Positions 1 to 34,278 of a stretch of DNA of 34,278 bases are shown here, piece by piece. A model generated the notes under the pieces. It made no database searches. It was not told where the DNA came from and saw only the letters and a program-made list of their open reading frames with translations. The stretch comes from a virus. Made by a program: the position numbers and the translations under genes. Position 1 is the first letter of the stretch. Every line of letters starts with the position of its first letter. The DNA is taken from the IMG/VR virus record IMGVR_UViG_3300027754_000259, positions 1-34,278 of that record; one strand, given 5' to 3'.

Positions 1-173
1 TACAAGCTACATTACAAGATGGCGACATAGTAGATATTAGTAGATTCATGCCAGATATGAAAGCTAGTACATTCTTTGAAGCTGAAATGTTAATGGCTAA
101 CCTTTATTTTAGTGACCCTGACATCTACGGAGTGATTAAAATAGAACCTTTAAACGATTTTTACCAACCTACA
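1..173. repeat. Left copy of the contig-end overlap
   Basis: Positions 1-173 match 34106-34278 without gaps, with 9 mismatches (14, 20, 23, 27, 122, 125, 134, 165, 173). Both copies lie in the same reading frame of the same tail gene. Seven of the nine differences are synonymous; the other two are Ile/Val at 27 and Gln/Lys at 165. This fits one locus sampled from two population variants and left at both ends of a circular or circularly permuted assembly. A true terminal repeat would be expected to be identical. Confidence 0.93.
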
Positions 174-1058: not shown

Positions 1059-1552
1059 TGGACATAAAAAGAAGACAAGTAATTAAAAGAAGTACAGGAG
1101 TTGCGACAGTTCCTGTAAGTGCTGACCACAGAAACGGTGACTGGATTGTTACAGACATCTACGAAGGTGAGTTGATGCAAGACATTACCACGGGTTTATT
1201 ATACACACGTTTAGGAAATGATATACTAGACGCTAACGGAAAGCCTTTAGTGAAAAATTACCGTGCTTTAATATCACAAGTAAGCACAAGCGCGCCAAGT
1301 GTAATAGAGTTTGAAAACACTATAGGAGCAATTGTATGGACTAGAATTTCAGCGGGTAAATATATGGGTACACTAGTAGGAGCTTTTACAATAAACAAAG
1401 TAGAATGTTATTGCGGTACTCCAATGGTTACTGATAGGGTTTACAACTTCTATAGAAAGTCAGCTAATGCTATTGAATTATACACTTATGAGGGAGGTGT
1501 GTTAACGGATGCAATTATAGATAATTTATCAATTAAAATAACTATTAACTAA
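1058..1552 (+). CDS. Minor structural (tail-associated) protein, 164 aa
   Basis: The product is a small beta-rich protein with no signal peptide or membrane segment. The N-terminal half (about residues 15-50) has the look of phage fibre or baseplate attachment segments, with a GDWIVTDIYEGEL stretch. The C-terminal half (residues about 75-164) carries a Trp-Thr-Arg followed by a Gly-rich beta segment. It is coupled by TAATG to the hub-like gene before it and by TAATG to the tape measure gene after it, so it is probably made with the tail tip. No specific family is recognised; a fibre-tip or assembly role is a guess from context. Confidence 0.6.
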   Translation: MDIKRRQVIKRSTGVATVPVSADHRNGDWIVTDIYEGELMQDITTGLLYTRLGNDILDANGKPLVKNYRALISQVSTSAPSVIEFENTIGAIVWTRISAGKYMGTLVGAFTINKVECYCGTPMVTDRVYNFYRKSANAIELYTYEGGVLTDAIIDNLSIKITIN

Positions 1553-3687
1553 TGGCTGAAGAAATAGTATTTAAGACCACGGTCGACACAGGTAATAGTG
1601 TTTCTGCAATCAACAACGTAGACAAAGCGTTAAAAGAAGTTAACTCAACGGTAAAGGTTGCTACTACTGATTCAGCAAAAGCATTTGAGGAACTGAATAG
1701 AAAAGTTGAGAGTGGTGAGTTATCTATAAAACAACTTGCTAGAGCTGTAAAGGAATACGCTAGTATTGCAATAATGGCTGGAGAGGACAGTCCTATAGGT
1801 CAAGAAGCTATAAAAAAGGCAGGTCAATTAAAGGATAGGTTATCAGATTTAGGAACGCAAATAAACGCAAACGCAAATGACGGGCGTAATATGCAAACAG
1901 CTATACAAGTTGGTTCAGGGGTTGCTGCTGGTTATGCAGTTGCTCAAGGTGCTATGGCTTTGTTTGGGAATGAGAATAAAGACCTACAAAAAACTTTAGT
2001 AAAACTGCAAGCTATTCAAGCTGTTTTAGCTGGACTTGAACAAATACGCGCTACCCTTGAAAAGGAAAGTTTAGTAAGGTTAAAAGCTACTCAAATATGG
2101 AATAAGATAAAGATTGCTAGTGAGTACGCTTACACAACTGCAATCGGTACAAGTACGGGAGCTTTACGTATAGCTCGTATAGCAATGTTAGCTTTGCCAA
2201 TAGTCGCTATTATTGCTGGTATAGTCGCTATTGCTGGAGCTATGGGAGCGTTTAGTAGTTCAACAGCTGATGCTGCAGAAAAACAAGCTGCATTAAATCA
2301 ACATGAAAAAAGAGGTTTAGAAATTGCCCTTCAAGTTATATCTCAGTCTGAAAAAATAAGAGCAAATAAACAAGGGGGTGTTAATATGATTCAAAAAGAA
2401 ATTGACATTCTAAAAGCTAAAGGAGCTACAGACCAAGAGGTGTTTCTTAAAGAGCAAGAGTTAGCAAATGCAAGAATACAGAATTTAAAAATAAAAGGTT
2501 TATCACTAGATCAAAATAATAAATACGAAAGAACAGAAGCATGGAAAACAGTATTTGAAATAAAACAAGCTCAACATGAAAAACTAGTATTAGAAACTGC
2601 TAATGATAAAGCAATTGCAGAAGCAAAAAAAACAAGTTCCGATGAAGCTAAAAAGAAACGTGATGAAAGAAATAAAGAGCATATTCAACAAGAACGTGAA
2701 AGATTGTTAAATCTTAAAAAGTTAGATAATGATTTTTTAATGGAGATTGAACAAGCAGAAACTGAATACTTTGACTCTTTATTAACTCAAAGACAAAAAG
2801 ACATACAAGATGTTAACGATTATTATTTTAATTTAATTTCACAAGCAGAACAGAATGGACAAGACACTACAGTACTGAAGCAAGCACAATCGCAAAAATT
2901 ATATCTAATAAACAAAGAATTTACAGATAAAGAAACTGAAGACCGAAAAAATGCTTTAGATATACAAGCACAAGCTGAAGAAGATTTTTATACAACTTAT
3001 CAAGAGGCAATTAATACTTCACAAGATAACGAAATAACTGCTATAAATGATAAGTATTTTTTACTTATAAAAACAGCTGAACAATACGGACTTGATACTG
3101 TAGAACTTGAAAAGAAAAGACAAGATGAATTAGATAAGGTAGAAGAAACTGCAATTAATAAAAAGATAGATAATATTAAAAAAATTGCAGACGCTACAAT
3201 GACATCTTTAAATGCTTTAAATGATTTACAAAATCAATTAGATGCTAATAAATTAAAGAATCAAAACTTAACAGAAGCGCAAATATTAGAGATTAAAAAG
3301 AAAGCATTTAATAGAGATAAAGCTTTAAAGATTGCTAGTGTTTCTATAAACACAGCAGAAGCTATAAGTAAATCCGTTGCTGCAAGTCCATTAACATTTG
3401 GAGCGCCTTTCTCTGTATTCTCAGCGGTCACGGGAATAGCACAAATAGCAGCAATTGCAAGCACTAAGTTTGATGGAGGTAGCGGTAATATTGCACCACC
3501 ACCAGCTCCAAGTAATGACGCTCAAGGCGGTGGTGGTGGTTTTGGTTCTGGTTCTACTAGTCAAGTTAGTAGTGTTGGACTTACAGATAATGCAACTGGA
3601 ATAAAAGTAACCGTTGTAGATTCTGAAATAAAAGCCGTTATGGATGCCTCGGCTGCAGCTAGTGCGTTGTCTACTTTTGGAGGTTAG
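1552..3687 (+). CDS. Tail tape measure protein
   Basis: At 711 aa this is one of the two longest proteins here. It has the tape-measure layout: a helical N-terminus, a Gly/Ala-rich hydrophobic segment (about 119-139), a strong hydrophobic stretch around 207-232 that can enter the host membrane, a long charged coiled coil (about 270-560), and a second Ala-rich hydrophobic region (about 595-645). A Gly-rich linker and small C-terminal domain follow. The protein sets tail length and is ejected with the DNA in siphoviruses. It starts at a TAATG overlap with the previous gene and ends just before a palindromic motif and new promoter, so it closes the tail operon. Its short length predicts a short tail. 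Confidence 0.87.
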   Translation: MAEEIVFKTTVDTGNSVSAINNVDKALKEVNSTVKVATTDSAKAFEELNRKVESGELSIKQLARAVKEYASIAIMAGEDSPIGQEAIKKAGQLKDRLSDLGTQINANANDGRNMQTAIQVGSGVAAGYAVAQGAMALFGNENKDLQKTLVKLQAIQAVLAGLEQIRATLEKESLVRLKATQIWNKIKIASEYAYTTAIGTSTGALRIARIAMLALPIVAIIAGIVAIAGAMGAFSSSTADAAEKQAALNQHEKRGLEIALQVISQSEKIRANKQGGVNMIQKEIDILKAKGATDQEVFLKEQELANARIQNLKIKGLSLDQNNKYERTEAWKTVFEIKQAQHEKLVLETANDKAIAEAKKTSSDEAKKKRDERNKEHIQQERERLLNLKKLDNDFLMEIEQAETEYFDSLLTQRQKDIQDVNDYYFNLISQAEQNGQDTTVLKQAQSQKLYLINKEFTDKETEDRKNALDIQAQAEEDFYTTYQEAINTSQDNEITAINDKYFLLIKTAEQYGLDTVELEKKRQDELDKVEETAINKKIDNIKKIADATMTSLNALNDLQNQLDANKLKNQNLTEAQILEIKKKAFNRDKALKIASVSINTAEAISKSVAASPLTFGAPFSVFSAVTGIAQIAAIASTKFDGGSGNIAPPPAPSNDAQGGGGGFGSGSTSQVSSVGLTDNATGIKVTVVDSEIKAVMDASAAASALSTFGG

Positions 3688-19748: not shown

Positions 19749-19946
19749 ATGAAATATTTACCAATCTTACTATTATTATCATGTAGTACTAGCGTTCACC
19801 AATACAATCTAGATATTCAACGTAAGAAAATGCTGAAATATGACAAGCAAAGCATACGTAAACAGCAGAATATAAGAGATAAGAGGGGTAAAACACTATT
19901 TATAAAACGTAAAAAAGTAAAACAAAACGTAAAAAAGTATATTTGA
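19749..19946 (+). CDS. Small lipoprotein, 65 aa, reading into the iteron array
   Basis: From the ATG at 19749 the protein begins MKYLPILLLLSCSTS, a lipoprotein signal with lipobox LLSC (Cys12 would be the lipidated residue). The mature part is short and extremely basic, ending in KRKKVKQNVKKYI. The in-frame upstream ATG at 19677 would bury the signal, so 19749 is preferred. The last 13 codons are made of the 11-bp iterons (19908-19918, 19928-19938), so the C-terminus may be imposed by the DNA repeats. A surface or exclusion role is possible but unproven. Confidence 0.5.
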   Translation: MKYLPILLLLSCSTSVHQYNLDIQRKKMLKYDKQSIRKQQNIRDKRGKTLFIKRKKVKQNVKKYI

Positions 19947-20308
19947 TTTTTTTACGGAAAACATAGTTGATTTTCAAATAGTTATAAGCCACCGTAAAAA
20001 AGTGGTTTTTTTTTGCTTTATTTTTTTACGGTCTTAAACGTACTGTTAATAGGCTTCTACGAGCAAAACGTAAAAAAGTTTATAAAAAAAGGGAAGTTTT
20101 TTTAAAAATAATATTTTTTATTTTTTTAGGGTAAAAAACAATTTACTTTTTTACGTTTTCAATCTAAACCTTTACTGCCATTGACTTTAAGACCGTAAAA
20201 AAATAAAAACACTTTTTTACGGTTAAAATACAAAAGCCTATTCCTATTGACTTTGAGACCGTAAAAAAATCATTTTAACTTTTTTACGTTTTAGTTAACT
20301 TTTTTACG
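19908..20308. repeat. Iteron array, 12 copies of CGTAAAAAA(G/A)T: likely replication origin
   Basis: Twelve 11-bp copies are present. + strand: 19908, 19928, 19993, 20069, 20194, 20260. - strand: 19946, 20020, 20145, 20211, 20278, 20298 (first base given). Three sit in a longer repeat sharing TAAGACCGTAAAAAAAT or near variants (20186-20204, 20252-20270, and the reverse strand at 20020-20038). A strongly AT-rich stretch (20098-20128) may be the unwinding element. The array lies directly upstream of the SF3 helicase gene. Phages of this kind often have initiator sites beside the helicase gene. A transcription-control array is the alternative. Confidence 0.72.
19989..20014 (+). terminator. Weak terminator-like hairpin within the iteron array
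   Basis: CCAC (19989-19992) pairs with GTGG (20002-20005) around one iteron, followed by nine Ts (20006-20014). The stem is only 4-5 bp, so strength is uncertain. It could end the lipoprotein transcript. The same bases form an iteron, so the hairpin may be incidental. Confidence 0.3.
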
Positions 20309-20329
20309 TTTTAATTAAAATATTATATA

Positions 20330-20423: not shown

Positions 20424-20611
20424 TGTTATTTAAAAAACTTTATATGAATTACAGATTAAAAAAAGATGATTCAATTATTGAAGTGTTAAACTTTGATAAA
20501 ACAACTAGAATTATTATTCAAAATAATGATGGTCAAACCTACATTGATTTGAATAAAAAACAATTAGATGAGATAATATATCAGTTAACAATTTCATTAA
20601 ACGAACTATGA
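20417..20611 (+). CDS. Small protein upstream of the SF3 helicase, 64 aa (or 55 aa)
   Basis: The product is a small alpha/beta protein: two strands (SIIEVLNF, TRIIIQNNDGQTYIDL) and a C-terminal helix (KKQLDEIIYQLTISL). The ATG at 20417 lies inside the second stem of the leader structure. The in-frame ATG at 20444 would give a 55-aa protein starting MNYRLKKDD and is perhaps the better start. It overlaps the helicase start by four bases (ATGA at 20608-20611). Function is unknown; small DNA-binding or regulatory proteins are common in this position. Confidence 0.6.
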   Translation: MGLLFKKLYMNYRLKKDDSIIEVLNFDKTTRIIIQNNDGQTYIDLNKKQLDEIIYQLTISLNEL

Positions 20612-22023
20612 ACGATAACAATTTAAAACCTTTTTATGACATTAGTCAAGATGGTAAGCCTTCACTAAGTATTTATAGATTTAGATTATTTTTAGAATAT
20701 AGTGGGTTTTTTAAAAATCGACCTAATGAAAATAGTGCTTTTAATTTAATTAAAAAGAATGGTATGTTTTTAGAAATTAAAGATGAAACTGATATAAAAG
20801 ATTTTGTTTTAACATATATTTTAAATGATTCAAAATCTGAAGCAGTTTATAATTTGATGGCAGGAAAAACAACTACTTTTAAACGTGATTTTTTATCTCA
20901 AATAGCTACAAAAGAAATAAAAATATTAAGAGATACTAAATATATTTGCTATTTGTTTTATGAGAATGGAGTAGTTGAGGTAAAAAAAAATAGTCAAAAT
21001 TTAAAAAAATATAGTGATTATGGTTTATCAATATGGAAAGACCAGGTTATCAAAAGAAACTATATTGAAAGCGACCACCACGATAGCGAGTTTAGAACTT
21101 TTATATGGAAGATTTCAGGTGAGAATGTAGATAGATATAATACGTTTCAAAGTGTAATAGGTTACTTAGTACATTCGTATAAATCTAAAGGAGATAATAA
21201 AGCTATTATTTTAAATGATGAAATGATTTCAGACGAACCAAACGGTAGGAGTGGTAAAGGTTTATTTTGGAATGCTTTATCTAATATGAAAAAAGTACAG
21301 TCTATTGACGGTAAAAAGTTTTCGTTTCAAGATCAATTCCCTTATCAATCTATAAAAACAGATTGTCAAGTTTTAGTGTTTGATGATGTAAAAAGAAATT
21401 TTGCTTTTGAGAATTTGTTTAGTGTAATTACTGAAGGAATAGAAATAACTTACAAGGGACAAAATACTATTAAGCTTCCTGTTGAAGACAGTCCTAAAAT
21501 ATTAATTACTACAAATTATGTTTTAAAAGGTACAGGAGGCTCACATGATGCTAGGAAATTTGAAGTTGAATTAAGTACGTTTTTTAATGCTACACACACA
21601 CCGATTAACTTCTTTGGCCATATGCTTTTTGATGATTGGGACTTAGAAGAGTTTGCAAGGTTTGACTGTTACATGATTGAATGTGTAAAAAAATATCTTA
21701 ATAATGGGTTAATGAACTATGAAAGCATATCTTTACCGTTCAAAAAATTTGAAATTGATATAAGTAAAGAATTACTAGAATGTGTTGAGACTTTAAAAAG
21801 TGGACAATGGTACGAGTCTTTGTGGTTCTATGAATTTTACGAGAATCAATTAATCAATAAATTTGATAGGAATAAGAAAACTAAAAACATGGTAACAAAA
21901 TACATAATAAAATATTGTGAATTTTATGATTTTAAATATGAATCAGTTTCACCTGGCGGAGTTAAAAAATTTAAAATTGAAAGACCTACTATTAACCCAA
22001 AAACTTTAGACAAATGGAACTAA
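20608..22023 (+). CDS. SF3-type replicative helicase (phage primase/helicase-like ATPase)
   Basis: In this 471-aa protein residues about 195-330 form an SF3/AAA+ core: Walker A EPNGRSGKGL (Lys217), Walker B QVLVFDD (Asp259, Asp260), sensor-1-like KILITTN (297-303) and an arginine in SHDARKFEVELS (316) as a possible finger. Residues 1-190 have no primase motif I recognise; residues about 380-471 are helical and may bind DNA. Such proteins unwind DNA at the origin, here probably recognising the iteron array 300 bases upstream. The stop overlaps the next gene by 10 bases. It is probably the initiator-helicase of the phage. Confidence 0.85.
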   Translation: MNDNNLKPFYDISQDGKPSLSIYRFRLFLEYSGFFKNRPNENSAFNLIKKNGMFLEIKDETDIKDFVLTYILNDSKSEAVYNLMAGKTTTFKRDFLSQIATKEIKILRDTKYICYLFYENGVVEVKKNSQNLKKYSDYGLSIWKDQVIKRNYIESDHHDSEFRTFIWKISGENVDRYNTFQSVIGYLVHSYKSKGDNKAIILNDEMISDEPNGRSGKGLFWNALSNMKKVQSIDGKKFSFQDQFPYQSIKTDCQVLVFDDVKRNFAFENLFSVITEGIEITYKGQNTIKLPVEDSPKILITTNYVLKGTGGSHDARKFEVELSTFFNATHTPINFFGHMLFDDWDLEEFARFDCYMIECVKKYLNNGLMNYESISLPFKKFEIDISKELLECVETLKSGQWYESLWFYEFYENQLINKFDRNKKTKNMVTKYIIKYCEFYDFKYESVSPGGVKKFKIERPTINPKTLDKWN

Positions 22024-29126: not shown

Positions 29127-30349
29127 ATCCACTAGTAACAATAATAATCCCTTATTCAATTGATAGGGGTTATCTTAGTCAAGCAATTGAAAGCGTTAAA
29201 AAACAAACGTATTCCAATATTGAATTATTAATACAAAATGATAATGTTAACGTATCTACTAACATAAACAACGGTATTAAACGTGCGAAAGGTTTATATA
29301 TTAAGTATTTATGTGAAGATGACTATTTAACAACTAACTCAATTACAGATAGCGTTGAAGCTATGCAAGGGTTCGACTTTATTCACGGGGTTGCTAATAA
29401 TGTACACACAAATATCGTGCAAGTGCAAGTGCCAAGGTTTAAGCAGCCTACTTTTAATGATATGATATACAACAATGTTATTCACGGAGGTACACTAATG
29501 TTTAGAAAGGACATTTTAGACGCTGTAAACGGCTTTGATGAGTCATTAACTTGTGCTGAAGAGTACGATTTAAACCTTAGATTGTTAGATGCTGGTTATA
29601 AGTTAGGATATACAGATAAGATTCTATACAATTACCGTAGACATGACGCTCAAAAGAGCTTAGGTAAAGGAATAAACCAAGGTGAACGAGCGCAAAAGAT
29701 ACAAGCAATTAGAGATAAGTTTACTAGAACACCTATAATTGTAGGAATAGCAACCTTTAAAGGGCGTGAATTGTTATTACAAAGGACTATAGAATCTTTA
29801 AAGGGTCAAGTTGATAAGATAATAGTTTACAATAACGAACTAAATACAGACTTAACCGATAACGGTAAGTTTTACGGGTTAAATTATGTGACTAAACCGT
29901 CTTACTATTTCAGTTGTGATGATGATATTATTTACCCTAGCGACTATATACAGAAAACAATACAAGCAATAGACAAACATAATTGTATAGTAACTTACCA
30001 CGGTCGTAGATTGAAAGGTATAGGAGTGGAATACTATAGAGGACATGATTCTTATAGCGCATTTAAAACCGTTAATAATGGAATGTATTTAGATGTATGT
30101 GGGACGGGAGTAACGGCATTTAAAACAGATTATTTTAACCCGTCAAGCTTACTAGATTCTGAACACAAAAAAATGAGTGATGTTATATTCTCACTTAAGG
30201 CAATAAAGGATAAAAAGAAAATGTTTATGTTACCACATTCCCAAGGGTGGATAATAGAACAAAGAACAATAGTAAATATACATACTGAACAAATTAAAAA
30301 CTCACAAATACAAACTAAGTTATGCGACGAAATACTGAATTTGAAATAA
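29123..30349 (+). CDS. Tandem-domain GT2 glycosyltransferase, 408 aa
   Basis: Two GT-A/GT2 domains lie on one chain. Domain 1 (about 1-200) has VTIIIPYSIDRGYLSQAIES, an acidic CEDDYL site (Glu65-Asp67) and HGGTLMFRKDIL, then DESLTCAEEYDLNLRLLDAG. Domain 2 (about 203-408) has VGIATFKGRELLLQRTIESL, a CDDDIIYP site (Asp266-Asp268) and CGTGVTAFK. Both DxD-type sites look intact, so the protein may add two sugars in turn. Its end overlaps the tail-chaperone gene by 28 bases, so it is made with late proteins, which favours glycosylation of a virion component. The acceptor is unknown. Confidence 0.85.
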   Translation: MNPLVTIIIPYSIDRGYLSQAIESVKKQTYSNIELLIQNDNVNVSTNINNGIKRAKGLYIKYLCEDDYLTTNSITDSVEAMQGFDFIHGVANNVHTNIVQVQVPRFKQPTFNDMIYNNVIHGGTLMFRKDILDAVNGFDESLTCAEEYDLNLRLLDAGYKLGYTDKILYNYRRHDAQKSLGKGINQGERAQKIQAIRDKFTRTPIIVGIATFKGRELLLQRTIESLKGQVDKIIVYNNELNTDLTDNGKFYGLNYVTKPSYYFSCDDDIIYPSDYIQKTIQAIDKHNCIVTYHGRRLKGIGVEYYRGHDSYSAFKTVNNGMYLDVCGTGVTAFKTDYFNPSSLLDSEHKKMSDVIFSLKAIKDKKKMFMLPHSQGWIIEQRTIVNIHTEQIKNSQIQTKLCDEILNLK

Positions 30350-30939
30350 AGCTACCTAAAACAATAAACGATTTAAGGATAAGACATTTAAAAGCGTTTA
30401 GTGACGAACACTTTAAGGTTGAAAATATTACACTGAATGATAAGGTTATATTCTTAGCTAATATTACTTTGGTTTCAGTACCTAAGTTATTGACTATTGA
30501 TTATAAAGACATAGAGAAAATGTTTAGTCATTGCATGAATTTATTTGATGGTTACAAAGTGAACGGTAACCCCAAAGAATTGATAACGGTAAATGATATA
30601 GACTATCAATTAGTAGATCAAAAGAAAGTTGGTATAGGTTACCATATTGACGTAGAAAATTCAGACTTTATAAATGACCCTGTAAGATTAGCTTGTGTTA
30701 ATTACATACCTAAGGGAACTATCTACGGTTGCATGGACGAAAACGAAAACATGCTTTACCCTATAAGCTCCAGATATGAAGACTTTAAAGAACATTTTAA
30801 GATGACAGACTTTGTAGAGCTTCAAGGTTTTTTTTTGCTCAGAGACGTAAGATTAATGAGCAACTATATGGAAAGCCTAAAGTTAAAAAAGATGATAAAA
30901 AAGAAGTTAAAAATGTTTGGGCTTGGCACGAAATCATAA
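30322..30939 (+). CDS. Tail assembly chaperone, short form (gpG-like)
   Basis: The 205-aa product of unshifted reading resembles Bacteroidota-phage tail-assembly chaperones: ELKLPKTINDL-like opening (residues 7-17), a central segment with IPKGTIYGC and a C-terminal FFLLRDVRLM helix. It ends in a Lys-rich stretch (LKLKKMIKKKLKMF) encoded by the slippery region. In lambda-type tails the short chaperone coats the tape measure. Its start overlaps the GT2 gene by 28 bases. Order chaperone, tail proteins, tape measure is conserved here. Confidence 0.78.
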   Translation: MRRNTEFEIKLPKTINDLRIRHLKAFSDEHFKVENITLNDKVIFLANITLVSVPKLLTIDYKDIEKMFSHCMNLFDGYKVNGNPKELITVNDIDYQLVDQKKVGIGYHIDVENSDFINDPVRLACVNYIPKGTIYGCMDENENMLYPISSRYEDFKEHFKMTDFVELQGFFLLRDVRLMSNYMESLKLKKMIKKKLKMFGLGTKS

Positions 30940-31079
30940 TTTATCTATCAAAAGAATTAGGTGAAAATAGAAAAGATATAATAAAAATGAATATCTTTAC
31001 ATTTAATAACTGGGTAAACTTCTTTACGTATAAGATAAAAAAAGATAACCCTCCGACAAAGACAATAGTTAGAAGATGA
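30322..31079 (+). CDS. Tail assembly chaperone, -1 frameshift long form (gpGT-like), about 252 aa
   Basis: Reading shifts by -1 at A_AAA_AAG (30885-30891, or 30897-30903) and continues to a TGA at 31077-31079. After the shift at the first site the chain reads KKDDKKEVKNVWAWHEIIIY and then SKELGENRKDIIKMNIFTFNNW, a T-domain-like helical extension with aromatic residues. The stop overlaps the next start (ATGA at 31076-31079), which is what a real gene end looks like, while the unshifted frame would leave 136 bases unused. The long form would recruit tail-tube protein to the chaperone-coated tape measure. Confidence 0.82.
30885..30903 (+). promoter_or_regulatory. Two tandem slippery heptamers A_AAA_AAG (programmed -1 frameshift)
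   Basis: In the frame of the gene starting at 30322, both 30885-30891 and 30897-30903 read A AAA AAG, the most efficient bacterial -1 heptamer. They are five bases apart (30892-30896). Shifting at either leads into the same -1 frame that stays open to 31077. No strong downstream stem is obvious. Confidence 0.8.
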
Positions 31080-31645
31080 CAGAAGCTGAGATATTAGGTA
31101 AGTTGAATTTAGGTAGTTCTAAAGCTATACTTAATAATACGGCTGGTAATCCTATGTCTGCATTACTTTTAAAACTCACTCAGGACGTTATAGATGATTT
31201 ACGTAAAGCAATAGCTGCGCGAGATATAGACGCTAGTAGAAACCTATCACAAGGTATAAAGCCAACAAAGGTAATATACAACGGTAAAGCGGTTAGTGTT
31301 GGTATTGAAATGGATTTCTATTGGAAGTATGTAAACTATGGAGTAAACGGTACTGAAGTTTCACATGGTGCGCCTAATTGGGGTAAAGCTCCTGATAGTG
31401 GTTATTCATTCCATGATTCTATTAAAAGTTGGATAGCTCAAAAGGGTATAGGTTTACCAGAACAATTTAAAACTTATGATTCATTTGCTTGGGCGGTTCA
31501 AAATAGTGTTGTTAAGAAAGGACAAAAACCAAAGCCATTCTTTGAGGACGTTGTTAATGAAAAACTTATTAACGTACTTAAAAAACCTATTCAAAAATTA
31601 TTAGGTAAATCAATTAAAATAAATATTATATCACCATGGCGGTAA
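31076..31645 (+). CDS. Tail completion/neck protein, HK97 gp10-like
   Basis: The 189-aa protein has a helical first half, then FYWKYVNYGVNGTE, a SFHDSIKSWIAQKGIGLP helix region and a C-terminal AWAVQNSVVKKGQKPKPFFEDV. The YVNxGxxGT and KxxKPKPFF pattern recalls gp10-like neck or tail-terminator proteins. It follows the frameshifted chaperone with an ATGA overlap and overlaps the next gene by 10 bases. Together with the neck protein at 9086, this gives two candidate tail-completion proteins; their exact roles are not separable from sequence. Confidence 0.65.
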   Translation: MTEAEILGKLNLGSSKAILNNTAGNPMSALLLKLTQDVIDDLRKAIAARDIDASRNLSQGIKPTKVIYNGKAVSVGIEMDFYWKYVNYGVNGTEVSHGAPNWGKAPDSGYSFHDSIKSWIAQKGIGLPEQFKTYDSFAWAVQNSVVKKGQKPKPFFEDVVNEKLINVLKKPIQKLLGKSIKINIISPWR

Positions 31646-32793: not shown

Positions 32794-34278
32794 ATGGATA
32801 GATTAGTAGTTAATAATACGGAATTAGATTTAAACGATAGAGTACCATTCCCTTTAAACTTTTCCATAGCAGATAGTAAAGAACCTAATAAGCGTAAAAG
32901 GAATTACTCGAAAGAAGTTGTTATTCCCGGCACGGCTTCAAATATGGCTTTCTTTAGTTCAGCTTATCAATTAGCTTTATCAACTGTTGACAATACTACT
33001 TTAATCGGTTTTAACTTTGACCCAACGGTAAGAGTAAAAGCAAAGTATTATAAAGAGGGTTTACTTGTCTTTAACGGGTTATTAAGATTGAACCAAGTTA
33101 CTATATCAAATGGTGACTATTCGTTTAAATGTACCTTATTCTCAAACTTCATTGATTTATTCATGAAGCTAGGAGATAAAAAGATAAGCGAGTTAGGATG
33201 GTCAGAATATAACCATTTATTAAATAGAACCAACGTAATTAATTCATTTGCTACTTCGGTAAAACTAGAAGGTGTAGATACGGTTAATTTCACAGCAGGC
33301 TTGCCAGATGGTTTTGGTTATCATTACGGATTAGTTGAATACGGCTATACAGCTTATTCGACAAGGTCAACAACTGATATAATACCTTTGACTTATGCGC
33401 GTGAAATATTCACTAAATGTTTAGAGGTTGCTAACTTAACGCATGAGTCTGATTACTTAGATTCTGCAATATACAAAAAGAAACTTGTAGGTTTTGGGGG
33501 AGGTCAAAAAATATCTTTACCATCTACGGAGGTTGCAAATAGACGCGTTAAATTTACAAGCACTTTAAGTAATGTTAAAGAATATGTTTATATAGCTGTA
33601 GACCCTGACAATGCGAATAGATATAGATACTTAGCTAATAATTGGATTGATATGTTAGCAACGTGGGACGGTATAACATCAACTTTAGTACATGATAATT
33701 TTGATCAATACTATATAGACCACACAAATACAGCAGCAGGATATTACAATTACATAACTATAAAAAAACAAGGTTTATATAATCTAAATATATCACACCC
33801 TATAGAAGTAGCTTTTGATTTTGGAGCTATGAGTAACGCTGGAGGTATATTTAATGTTAAGTGGGAAGTTTTAAAAAATGGCGCGGTTATAGATTCTCAA
33901 TTAGTTGAAGAGGGTGATATTAGTACAACTTACGCAAATACATTTATCTATAATAGCAATATTCAATTAAATGTTGGCGATGTTATTACTATGCGGTTTC
34001 AAGTTTATTTAGATTATAAGCTAGACGTCACAATGTTTTCAGGAATAGAACCATTAGAGATAAGTATAACTTCTAGTTCTAACTTTACTACGGATTTAAC
34101 AAGTGTACAAGCTACATTGCAAGACGGTGACGTAGTAGATATTAGTAGATTCATGCCAGATATGAAAGCTAGTACATTCTTTGAAGCTGAAATGTTAATG
34201 GCTAACCTTTATTTTAGTGACCCTGATATTTACGGAGTAATTAAAATAGAACCTTTAAACGATTTTTACAAACCTACT
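32794..34278 (+). CDS. Tail hub/baseplate-like structural protein, N-terminal part (gene continues at position 3)
   Basis: The gene starts at ATG 32794, immediately after the previous stop, and stays open for 495 codons to the right edge. Its last 57 codons repeat the start of the window. The N-terminus (RVPFPLNFSIADSKEPNKRKRNYSKEVVIPGTASN spread over residues 17-51) has the PF-LNFSIAD and KR-NYSK-IPGT pattern seen in large tail-tip proteins of Bacteroidota phages, which resemble gp27-type hubs. Residues about 190-430 are mixed beta. With the 3-1058 part it encodes about 789 aa. Exact role is inferred from position between tail protein and tape measure. Confidence 0.78.
   Translation, partial: MDRLVVNNTELDLNDRVPFPLNFSIADSKEPNKRKRNYSKEVVIPGTASNMAFFSSAYQLALSTVDNTTLIGFNFDPTVRVKAKYYKEGLLVFNGLLRLNQVTISNGDYSFKCTLFSNFIDLFMKLGDKKISELGWSEYNHLLNRTNVINSFATSVKLEGVDTVNFTAGLPDGFGYHYGLVEYGYTAYSTRSTTDIIPLTYAREIFTKCLEVANLTHESDYLDSAIYKKKLVGFGGGQKISLPSTEVANRRVKFTSTLSNVKEYVYIAVDPDNANRYRYLANNWIDMLATWDGITSTLVHDNFDQYYIDHTNTAAGYYNYITIKKQGLYNLNISHPIEVAFDFGAMSNAGGIFNVKWEVLKNGAVIDSQLVEEGDISTTYANTFIYNSNIQLNVGDVITMRFQVYLDYKLDVTMFSGIEPLEISITSSSNFTTDLTSVQATLQDGDVVDISRFMPDMKASTFFEAEMLMANLYFSDPDIYGVIKIEPLNDFYKPT
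34106..34278. repeat. Right copy of the contig-end overlap
   Basis: This stretch aligns without gaps to 1-173 with 9 mismatches, mostly third-codon-position changes. The reading frame of the gene from 32794 passes into the frame of the gene at 3-1058. One of the two copies should be removed when the genome is closed, leaving about 34,105 bp. Confidence 0.93.

What the first reader, a model, noticed from the sequence alone, without database searches (positions are those of the whole stretch)
30885..31079. Programmed -1 frameshift with two tandem A_AAA_AAG sites in the tail chaperone
Both heptamers are in the correct phase, and the -1 frame remains open for 62 codons and stops exactly at the ATGA overlap with the next gene. 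Otherwise 136 bases would be non-coding in a genome that has almost none. Lambda-type G/GT frameshifting is well known; doubling of the slip site within 19 bases is unusual and may raise or tune the ratio.
Basis: partly seen in the sequence, partly recalled or inferred. Interest (0 to 1): 0.6.

Follow-up and report, generated by a model that had tools for sequence, protein, structure and literature searches.

The report
Conserved nine-T slip site in phages

Summary
In detail: both A_AAA_AAG heptamers (30885-30891, 30897-30903) are in phase, and the -1 frame is open to the ATGA overlap at 31076-31079. The frameshift is almost certainly real, but the site is wrong. The heptamers are poorly conserved: at least one is in phase in 8 of 50 records of the gene's own family and both in 4 of 50. 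What is conserved is a run of nine T's 49 bases upstream of the first heptamer (30828-30836, GGT TTT TTT TTG). With a second, distant family that includes the isolates Nonlabens phages P12024S and P12024L, 192 of 192 loci carry a T-run of at least nine at the frame junction (T9 165, T10 22, T11 5). The run lies in three codon phases, and the -1 frame is the longest open frame in 186 of 186 testable loci. The -1 frame is better conserved than the 0 frame directly after the run. Conservation of a run of nine or more whatever the codon phase points to programmed transcriptional slippage. Ribosomal slippage at U_UUU_UUU in the same run is not excluded. A tail-assembly-chaperone role is plausible but unproven.

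The parts
30322..30939 (+). 0-frame ORF, 205 aa plus TAA; short product (N-terminal domain plus a K-rich tail poorly conserved between lineages)
30828..30836 (+). T9 run = inferred slip site (0 frame GGT TTT TTT TTG)
   Evidence: exactly T9 in 50 of 50 records; T>=9 in 192 of 192 loci with the second family; only T>=8 run inside ORFs >=150 aa in 16 of 16 loci
30834..31079 (+). -1-frame coding part (81 aa plus TGA); with residues 1-171 of the 0 frame it gives a 252-aa fusion
   Evidence: AlphaFold2 model of the fusion pLDDT 82.5, helix 161-182 runs through the junction
30897..30903 (+). second A_AAA_AAG heptamer; present, in phase, not conserved
31076..31645 (+). next gene, neck1/HK97-gp10-like head-tail protein, 189 aa; ATGA overlap
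   Evidence: PHROG 5 E 1.6e-4; used as site-independent bait
1552..3687 (+). putative tape measure protein, 711 aa; downstream of the frameshift gene across the permuted ends, not adjacent to it
   Evidence: window ORF hits phrog_21917 as does L022:10460-11879, which hits Porphyromonas phage tape measure proteins; L022 spans the window's two ends

Best explanation
The gene at 30322-31079 makes two proteins sharing 171 N-terminal residues: a 205-aa protein read in the annotated frame and a 252-aa protein whose last 81 residues come from the -1 frame. The switch is at the T9 run 30828-30836. Most likely RNA polymerase slips on the run and adds one U (U10), or an equivalent +3n, in a fraction of transcripts, which are then translated normally (programmed transcriptional slippage). 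Shown by sequence: both open frames, absence of a start codon for the -1 part, invariance of a T-run of nine or more at the junction, direction -1. Inferred: that slippage is by the polymerase rather than the ribosome, the ratio (tens of percent if like the Shigella and T6SS cases in print), and the role as a tail-assembly-chaperone-like pair analogous to lambda gpG/gpGT.
For: (1) T-run >=9 at the junction in 192 of 192 loci: 165 T9, 22 T10, 5 T11, none shorter. In one search, 189 loci fall into 36, 22 and 11 clusters at 70, 50 and 40% N-terminal identity. (2) The run sits in different codon phases (xxT TTT TTT TTN, xTT TTT TTT Txx, TTT TTT TTT Txx), and the frame relation stays -1 whether it is T9, T10 or T11, so the run and not a phased heptamer is kept. 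(3) In the 36 cluster representatives T>=9 occurs once elsewhere in 224,142 nt of ORFs >=150 aa, versus 36 of 36 sites. (4) The run is kept in GC-richer relatives such as L048 and L053 (GC 0.48, 0.47), where TTT is used for only 0.34 and 0.49 of Phe codons. (5) -1-frame residues straight after the run are more conserved than 0-frame ones in 12 lineages (mean BLOSUM62 1.16 vs 0.15). (6) No consistent downstream RNA structure (16 loci, mean z about -0.25, mononucleotide shuffles). (7) Print: nine A or T is the length at which selection against slippage appears in a large proportion of bacterial genomes (PMC1088944, passages); E. coli RNA polymerase prefers poly(T) and needs at least 7 T (PMC6260861, passages); slippage of 15-55% in Shigella genes (PMC4256274, passages).
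Against: No RNA or protein data. Direction is -1 in 186 of 186 loci with a readable -1 end; PMC3711429 (passages) reports that orthologs using ribosomal shifts keep one direction whereas those with confirmed slippage need not. U_UUU_UUU lies inside every run >=9, so a ribosomal slip is always possible. Part of the run is also demanded by amino acids of the two frames (F-F-F in one family). E. coli polymerase is reported to slip at T7-T8 too (5-10%), so nine is not a strict minimum. Runs of 9-12 A's are tolerated in coding sequence here (A9 3, A10 3, A12 1; one A9 lies at window 20982, inside ORF 20608-22023). The window itself has a short hairpin right after the run (z -2.7), not seen consistently in relatives.
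Confidence: 0.7

Rival explanations
1. Programmed -1 ribosomal frameshifting on U_UUU_UUU (or U_UUU_UUG) inside the same T run; the mRNA is faithful and tRNAs re-pair one base back.
For: The heptamer is present in phase in every run of nine or more T; direction is always -1 (186 of 186), as reported for ribosomal cases (PMC3711429); lambda-type tail genes use ribosomal shifts (PMC5009743 passages); a Porphyromonas phage in these collections has a pair of overlapping ORFs before its tape measure gene with an in-phase A_AAG_GGG.
Against: Seven T's would suffice, yet 0 of 192 loci have a run of 7 or 8. With a T_TTT_TTG slip the third base of codon 1 would be free, yet it is T in every group-A locus listed (usage of that codon 0.12-0.56 among its synonyms). 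No consistent downstream structure.
Confidence: 0.25
2. One reading: ribosomal -1 shift at the tandem A_AAA_AAG sites at 30885-30903.
For: Both heptamers are in phase and followed by an open -1 frame.
Against: At least one heptamer in phase in 8 of 50 and both in 4 of 50 records; both broken by substitutions in L002, L003, L008, L009; the conserved -1 residues AQRRKINEQLYG upstream of them would be lost; AAAAAAG count in the window equals chance.
Confidence: 0.03
3. DNA-level phase variation: the homopolymer changes length by replication slippage and switches the fusion on or off.
For: Long homopolymers inside genes are typical of contingency loci (recalled).
Against: All loci that can be read through keep the -1 relation at the DNA level; none has the fusion in one frame. 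T10 and T11 cases keep the same frame relation.
Confidence: 0.01
4. Sequencing or assembly error at a homopolymer, or a decayed gene.
For: Homopolymers are error-prone on some platforms (recalled).
Against: Same T>=9 and same open -1 frame over 192 loci, including two deposited isolate genomes, JQ823122 and JQ823123.
Confidence: 0.01

Closest known systems
Lambda gpG/gpGT and other tail assembly chaperone frameshifts
   Same: Small structural-module gene; -1 shift near the end of a first ORF; short product plus C-terminally extended product with an extra small domain.
   Different: Here the conserved element is a run of nine or more T's in variable codon phase, not a phased heptamer; the gene precedes a neck1-like gene and not the tape measure gene; no curated chaperone family matches above cut-off.
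Programmed transcriptional slippage on A9/T9-type runs (Shigella mxiE, spa13; Thermus dnaX; IS transposases; Citrobacter tssM1)
   Same: Homopolymer of A or T at the junction of two overlapping ORFs, kept under selection; one added base restores the second ORF (mxiE).
   Different: Phage structural-module gene; conserved over 22 clusters at 50% identity; direction uniformly -1; heterogeneous mRNA not yet seen.
Nonlabens phages P12024S and P12024L (Inhavirus), genes P12024S_38 and _39
   Same: T9 run, -1 frame open from the run into gene _39; product of _38 matches the predicted fold (Foldseek E 1.6e-5). Annotated as two separate hypothetical proteins.
   Different: Codon phase of the run is xTT TTT TTT Txx; gene follows the terminase large subunit gene.

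Membership tests
Programmed transcriptional slippage (realignment) | Slippage-prone homopolymer (about 9 A/T) at the ORF junction, maintained in homologs | tested here: met
   192 of 192 loci with T>=9
Programmed transcriptional slippage (realignment) | Run conserved independently of codon phase | tested here: met
   three phases, lengths 9-11
Programmed transcriptional slippage (realignment) | mRNA population heterogeneous in run length | not testable with these tools
   no RNA reads available
Programmed transcriptional slippage (realignment) | Shift direction may differ among orthologs (tendency, not a requirement) | tested here: inconclusive
   always -1, 186 of 186; counts against slippage but does not exclude it
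Lambda-type -1 ribosomal frameshift of tail assembly chaperones | Conserved X_XXY_YYZ heptamer in a fixed phase | tested here: inconclusive
   A_AAA_AAG not conserved (8 of 50); U_UUU_UUU is contained in every run
Lambda-type -1 ribosomal frameshift of tail assembly chaperones | Two overlapping ORFs joined by -1 shift | tested here: met
Phage tail assembly chaperone | Gene immediately upstream of the tape measure gene | tested here: not met
   neck1-like, 385-aa, ~789-aa and ~169-aa genes lie between (L022; tape measure)
Phage tail assembly chaperone | Match to a curated chaperone family | tested here: inconclusive
   Phage_TAC_7 E 0.087 in 1 of 6 members; no PHROG named as chaperone and no other Pfam chaperone hit
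Phage tail assembly chaperone | Similar fold | tested here: inconclusive
   BFVD rank 43 Arthrobacter phage Kitkat tail assembly chaperone E 0.037, prob 0.96; no PDB match at E<=0.001
Phage tail assembly chaperone | Binds tape measure and tube proteins; absent from virions | not testable with these tools
   needs bench work

The most novel reading that the evidence does not exclude
A large group of phages (probably of Bacteroidota) sets the ratio of the two forms of a tail-assembly-type protein by RNA polymerase slippage on an obligatory T>=9 run instead of lambda-type ribosomal frameshifting, and has kept this through deep divergence and changes of codon phase.
Probability: 0.5. Interest if true: 0.75.

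Novelty: new variant of a known kind. Interest (0 to 1): 0.62.

Why it matters
Phage tail genes are a textbook case of ribosomal frameshifting. If this family does the same job by transcriptional slippage, the two mechanisms are interchangeable in morphogenesis as they are for dnaX, the long form would probably be made at a higher and differently regulated level, and frameshift predictors that look for phased heptamers would mis-place or miss it, as happened here. Two deposited isolate genomes make it directly testable.

Tried and rejected
Tandem A_AAA_AAG as slip site: rejected on conservation. Phase variation and assembly error: rejected because all readable loci keep the same frame relation. 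Downstream stem-loop or pseudoknot: none consistent (mononucleotide shuffles, 16 loci, simple folding only). First AlphaFold2 job (11 rows) failed (pLDDT 36.3) and was not used; a deeper alignment worked (pLDDT 82.5). PDB fold search gave nothing usable (best VIA Z 3.3); this does not show the fold is new. Profile comparison with the Porphyromonas pair gave no convincing match, and with the Nonlabens fusion only a weak one (E 0.13), in which the FFF/FFL positions nevertheless line up. BFVD also lists unnamed 258-268-aa proteins aligning over the whole fusion; whether some relatives encode the fusion in one frame could not be checked. Flavobacterium phage 6H (weak fold hit) shows no T9 at the corresponding end (T6 only); relationship uncertain. 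Polaribacter P12002L, Riemerella RAP44, Olleya Harreka_1 and Bacteroides BS-TP2 records were fetched and scanned for runs; no comparable gene was established in them. Genome contigs: no relative by tblastn in two scans. phages collection: no relative of the window's own gene (two chance-level hits at E about 1-2). Literature searches for slippage in phage tail genes; nothing describing this was listed, but most subscription papers are not held.

Rows dropped: loci whose contig ends before the site or starts after it (L012/L029, L032, L044, L055, L058) and repeat fetches of one contig were left out; the A4 search used one pattern that includes FFF, but the neck1-based search and one search did not touch the site, and of the patterns none covered the run. 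One of the six patterns begins at the run. One search kept 80 of 153 relatives. The 192 loci carry about 190 distinct contig names (L102/L182 and L112/L183 are the same contigs), and one contig is apparently the IMG copy of P12024L.

Full report
OBSERVATION. The 0-frame ORF 30322-30939 contains A_AAA_AAG in phase at 30885 and 30897. The -1 frame is open from 30801 to a TGA at 31077-31079 that overlaps the next ATG, and no ORF of 60 aa or more with its own start exists in that frame. AAAAAAG is as frequent in the window as in shuffles (30 against 28.2), so its presence alone means little. A run of nine T's lies at 30828-30836, inside the overlap and upstream of both heptamers.

WHERE THE SHIFT IS. 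Close relatives keep GGTTTTTTTTTG letter for letter while substitutions break one or both heptamers in most of them. I then looked for distant relatives by ways that do not depend on the site: the neck1-like neighbour gene, the 0-frame protein, and a profile of the fusion (one of its two patterns touches the site). In 50 of 50 records covering the site, one per contig, the run is exactly T9, the upstream frame is open and the -1 frame is open (one contig, L066, ends shortly after the run). These 50 include three of the second family (L059, L093, L094). A_AAA_AAG is in phase in 8 of 50, twice in 4 of 50. Between the run and the heptamers the -1 frame is the better conserved one: mean BLOSUM62 1.16 against 0.15 over 12 residues in 12 lineages; pairwise counts point the same way for the more distant loci L008 and L009, less clearly for close pairs. 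A shift at the heptamers would exchange these conserved residues for the poorly conserved 0-frame ones.

A SECOND FAMILY. A distant locus (L059, neck1 24% identical) led by protein search to the isolates Nonlabens phages P12024S and P12024L. Gene P12024S_38 runs over a T9 at JQ823122 23578-23586, from which the -1 frame is open into gene _39; the record annotates two hypothetical proteins. Profile and protein searches from these gave 142 further loci; all 142 have a T-run of at least nine in the overlap: T9 115, T10 22, T11 5. Over both families: 192 of 192 loci with T>=9. The -1 frame is the longest open one after the run in 186 of 186 loci where its stop is inside the contig (75-94 aa; 0 frame 18-86; +1 2-13 with two exceptions of 46 and 72). 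clusters 189 of them into 36, 22 and 11 groups at 70, 50 and 40% N-terminal identity. The run lies in three codon phases, and the frame relation is the same for T9, T10 and T11. In the 36 representatives, ORFs of 150 aa or more (224,142 nt) contain T8 twice and T9 once outside the site, and T>=9 at all 36 sites. A-runs are less restricted (A8 25, A9 3, A10 3, A12 1). In 16 of 16 loci the site is the only T>=8 inside such ORFs.

MECHANISM. U_UUU_UUU is present in every such run, so ribosomal slippage is possible everywhere. But a heptamer needs seven T's in a fixed phase, and no locus has a run of seven or eight. In the first family the third base of the first codon (GGT, GCT, TCT, AGT, CGT) is T in every locus listed, though such codons are used 12-56% of the time among their synonyms, and a T_TTT_TTG slip would not need it; a T_TTT_TTT slip would. 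The common factor is the length of the homopolymer, which is the signature of slippage by RNA polymerase: 9A/9T runs in PMC1088944 (passages), preference of E. coli polymerase for poly(T) in PMC6260861 (passages), slippage of 15-55% in Shigella genes and 20-25% in tssM1 in PMC4256274 (passages). No consistent downstream structure was found. Against: direction is uniformly -1, which PMC3711429 (passages) associates with ribosomal shifts; amino acids account for part of the run; and there are no RNA data.

WHAT THE PROTEIN IS. A model of the fusion (one Phe short; 37 rows) has pLDDT 82.5: an N domain of helices and a few strands, a helix 161-182 running through the junction, a low-confidence linker 186-195 and a small helical C domain 198-241. 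BFVD returns P12024S_38 (I6R9M9, E 1.6e-5) and, far down and weakly, named tail assembly chaperones (Kitkat, E 0.037). Pfam Phage_TAC_7 touches one of six members at E 0.087. The gene precedes a neck1-like gene; the tape measure gene lies several genes further. So it works like a chaperone pair in layout, but membership is not established.

NOVELTY. Recoding of a phage structural-module gene and slippage on T9 are each known; their combination, fixed across this much divergence, was not found in nine searches of the held papers. PMC5009743 and PMC10885494 were read only in passages. I rate it a new variant of a known kind.

Noticed in passing
window 1-172 and 34106-34277: The two ends match over 172 bases at 95%; contig L022 runs through the junction. 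The record is therefore probably a permuted, nearly complete genome of about 34.1 kb joined from two variants.
   Followed up: partly
window 19903-20313: Intergenic array of repeated CGTAAAAAAGT / ACTTTTTTACG units in both orientations, iteron-like, possibly a replication origin; it lies upstream of the 471-aa ORF at 20608 (phrog_28855). No Rfam match.
   Followed up: partly
window 31076-31645, alignment A2 columns about 111-152: The neck1-like protein has exchangeable versions of an internal stretch (SFHDSIK...FAWAVQ versus SMTAALKNWERDRGI...) between more conserved flanks, suggesting modular recombination.
   Followed up: no
L027 5769-6014 and L009 2168-2434: A small extra ORF before the frameshift gene begins with MRRNT(E/K)FEI, the same start as the frameshift gene in other relatives, as if an insertion split off the start.
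   Followed up: no
L027 1383-2558 versus L022 1508-2722: Relatives with the same downstream gene order carry terminase-position proteins of very different sequence.
   Followed up: no
window 20982-20990: An A9 run inside the 471-aa ORF; if the host polymerase slipped there too, part of that protein would be truncated. Not tested for conservation.
   Followed up: no
L095 6897-7606: Porphyromonas phage007a has two overlapping ORFs directly before its tape measure gene with A_AAG_GGG in phase near the first stop: an apparently ordinary, unannotated chaperone-type frameshift.
   Followed up: partly
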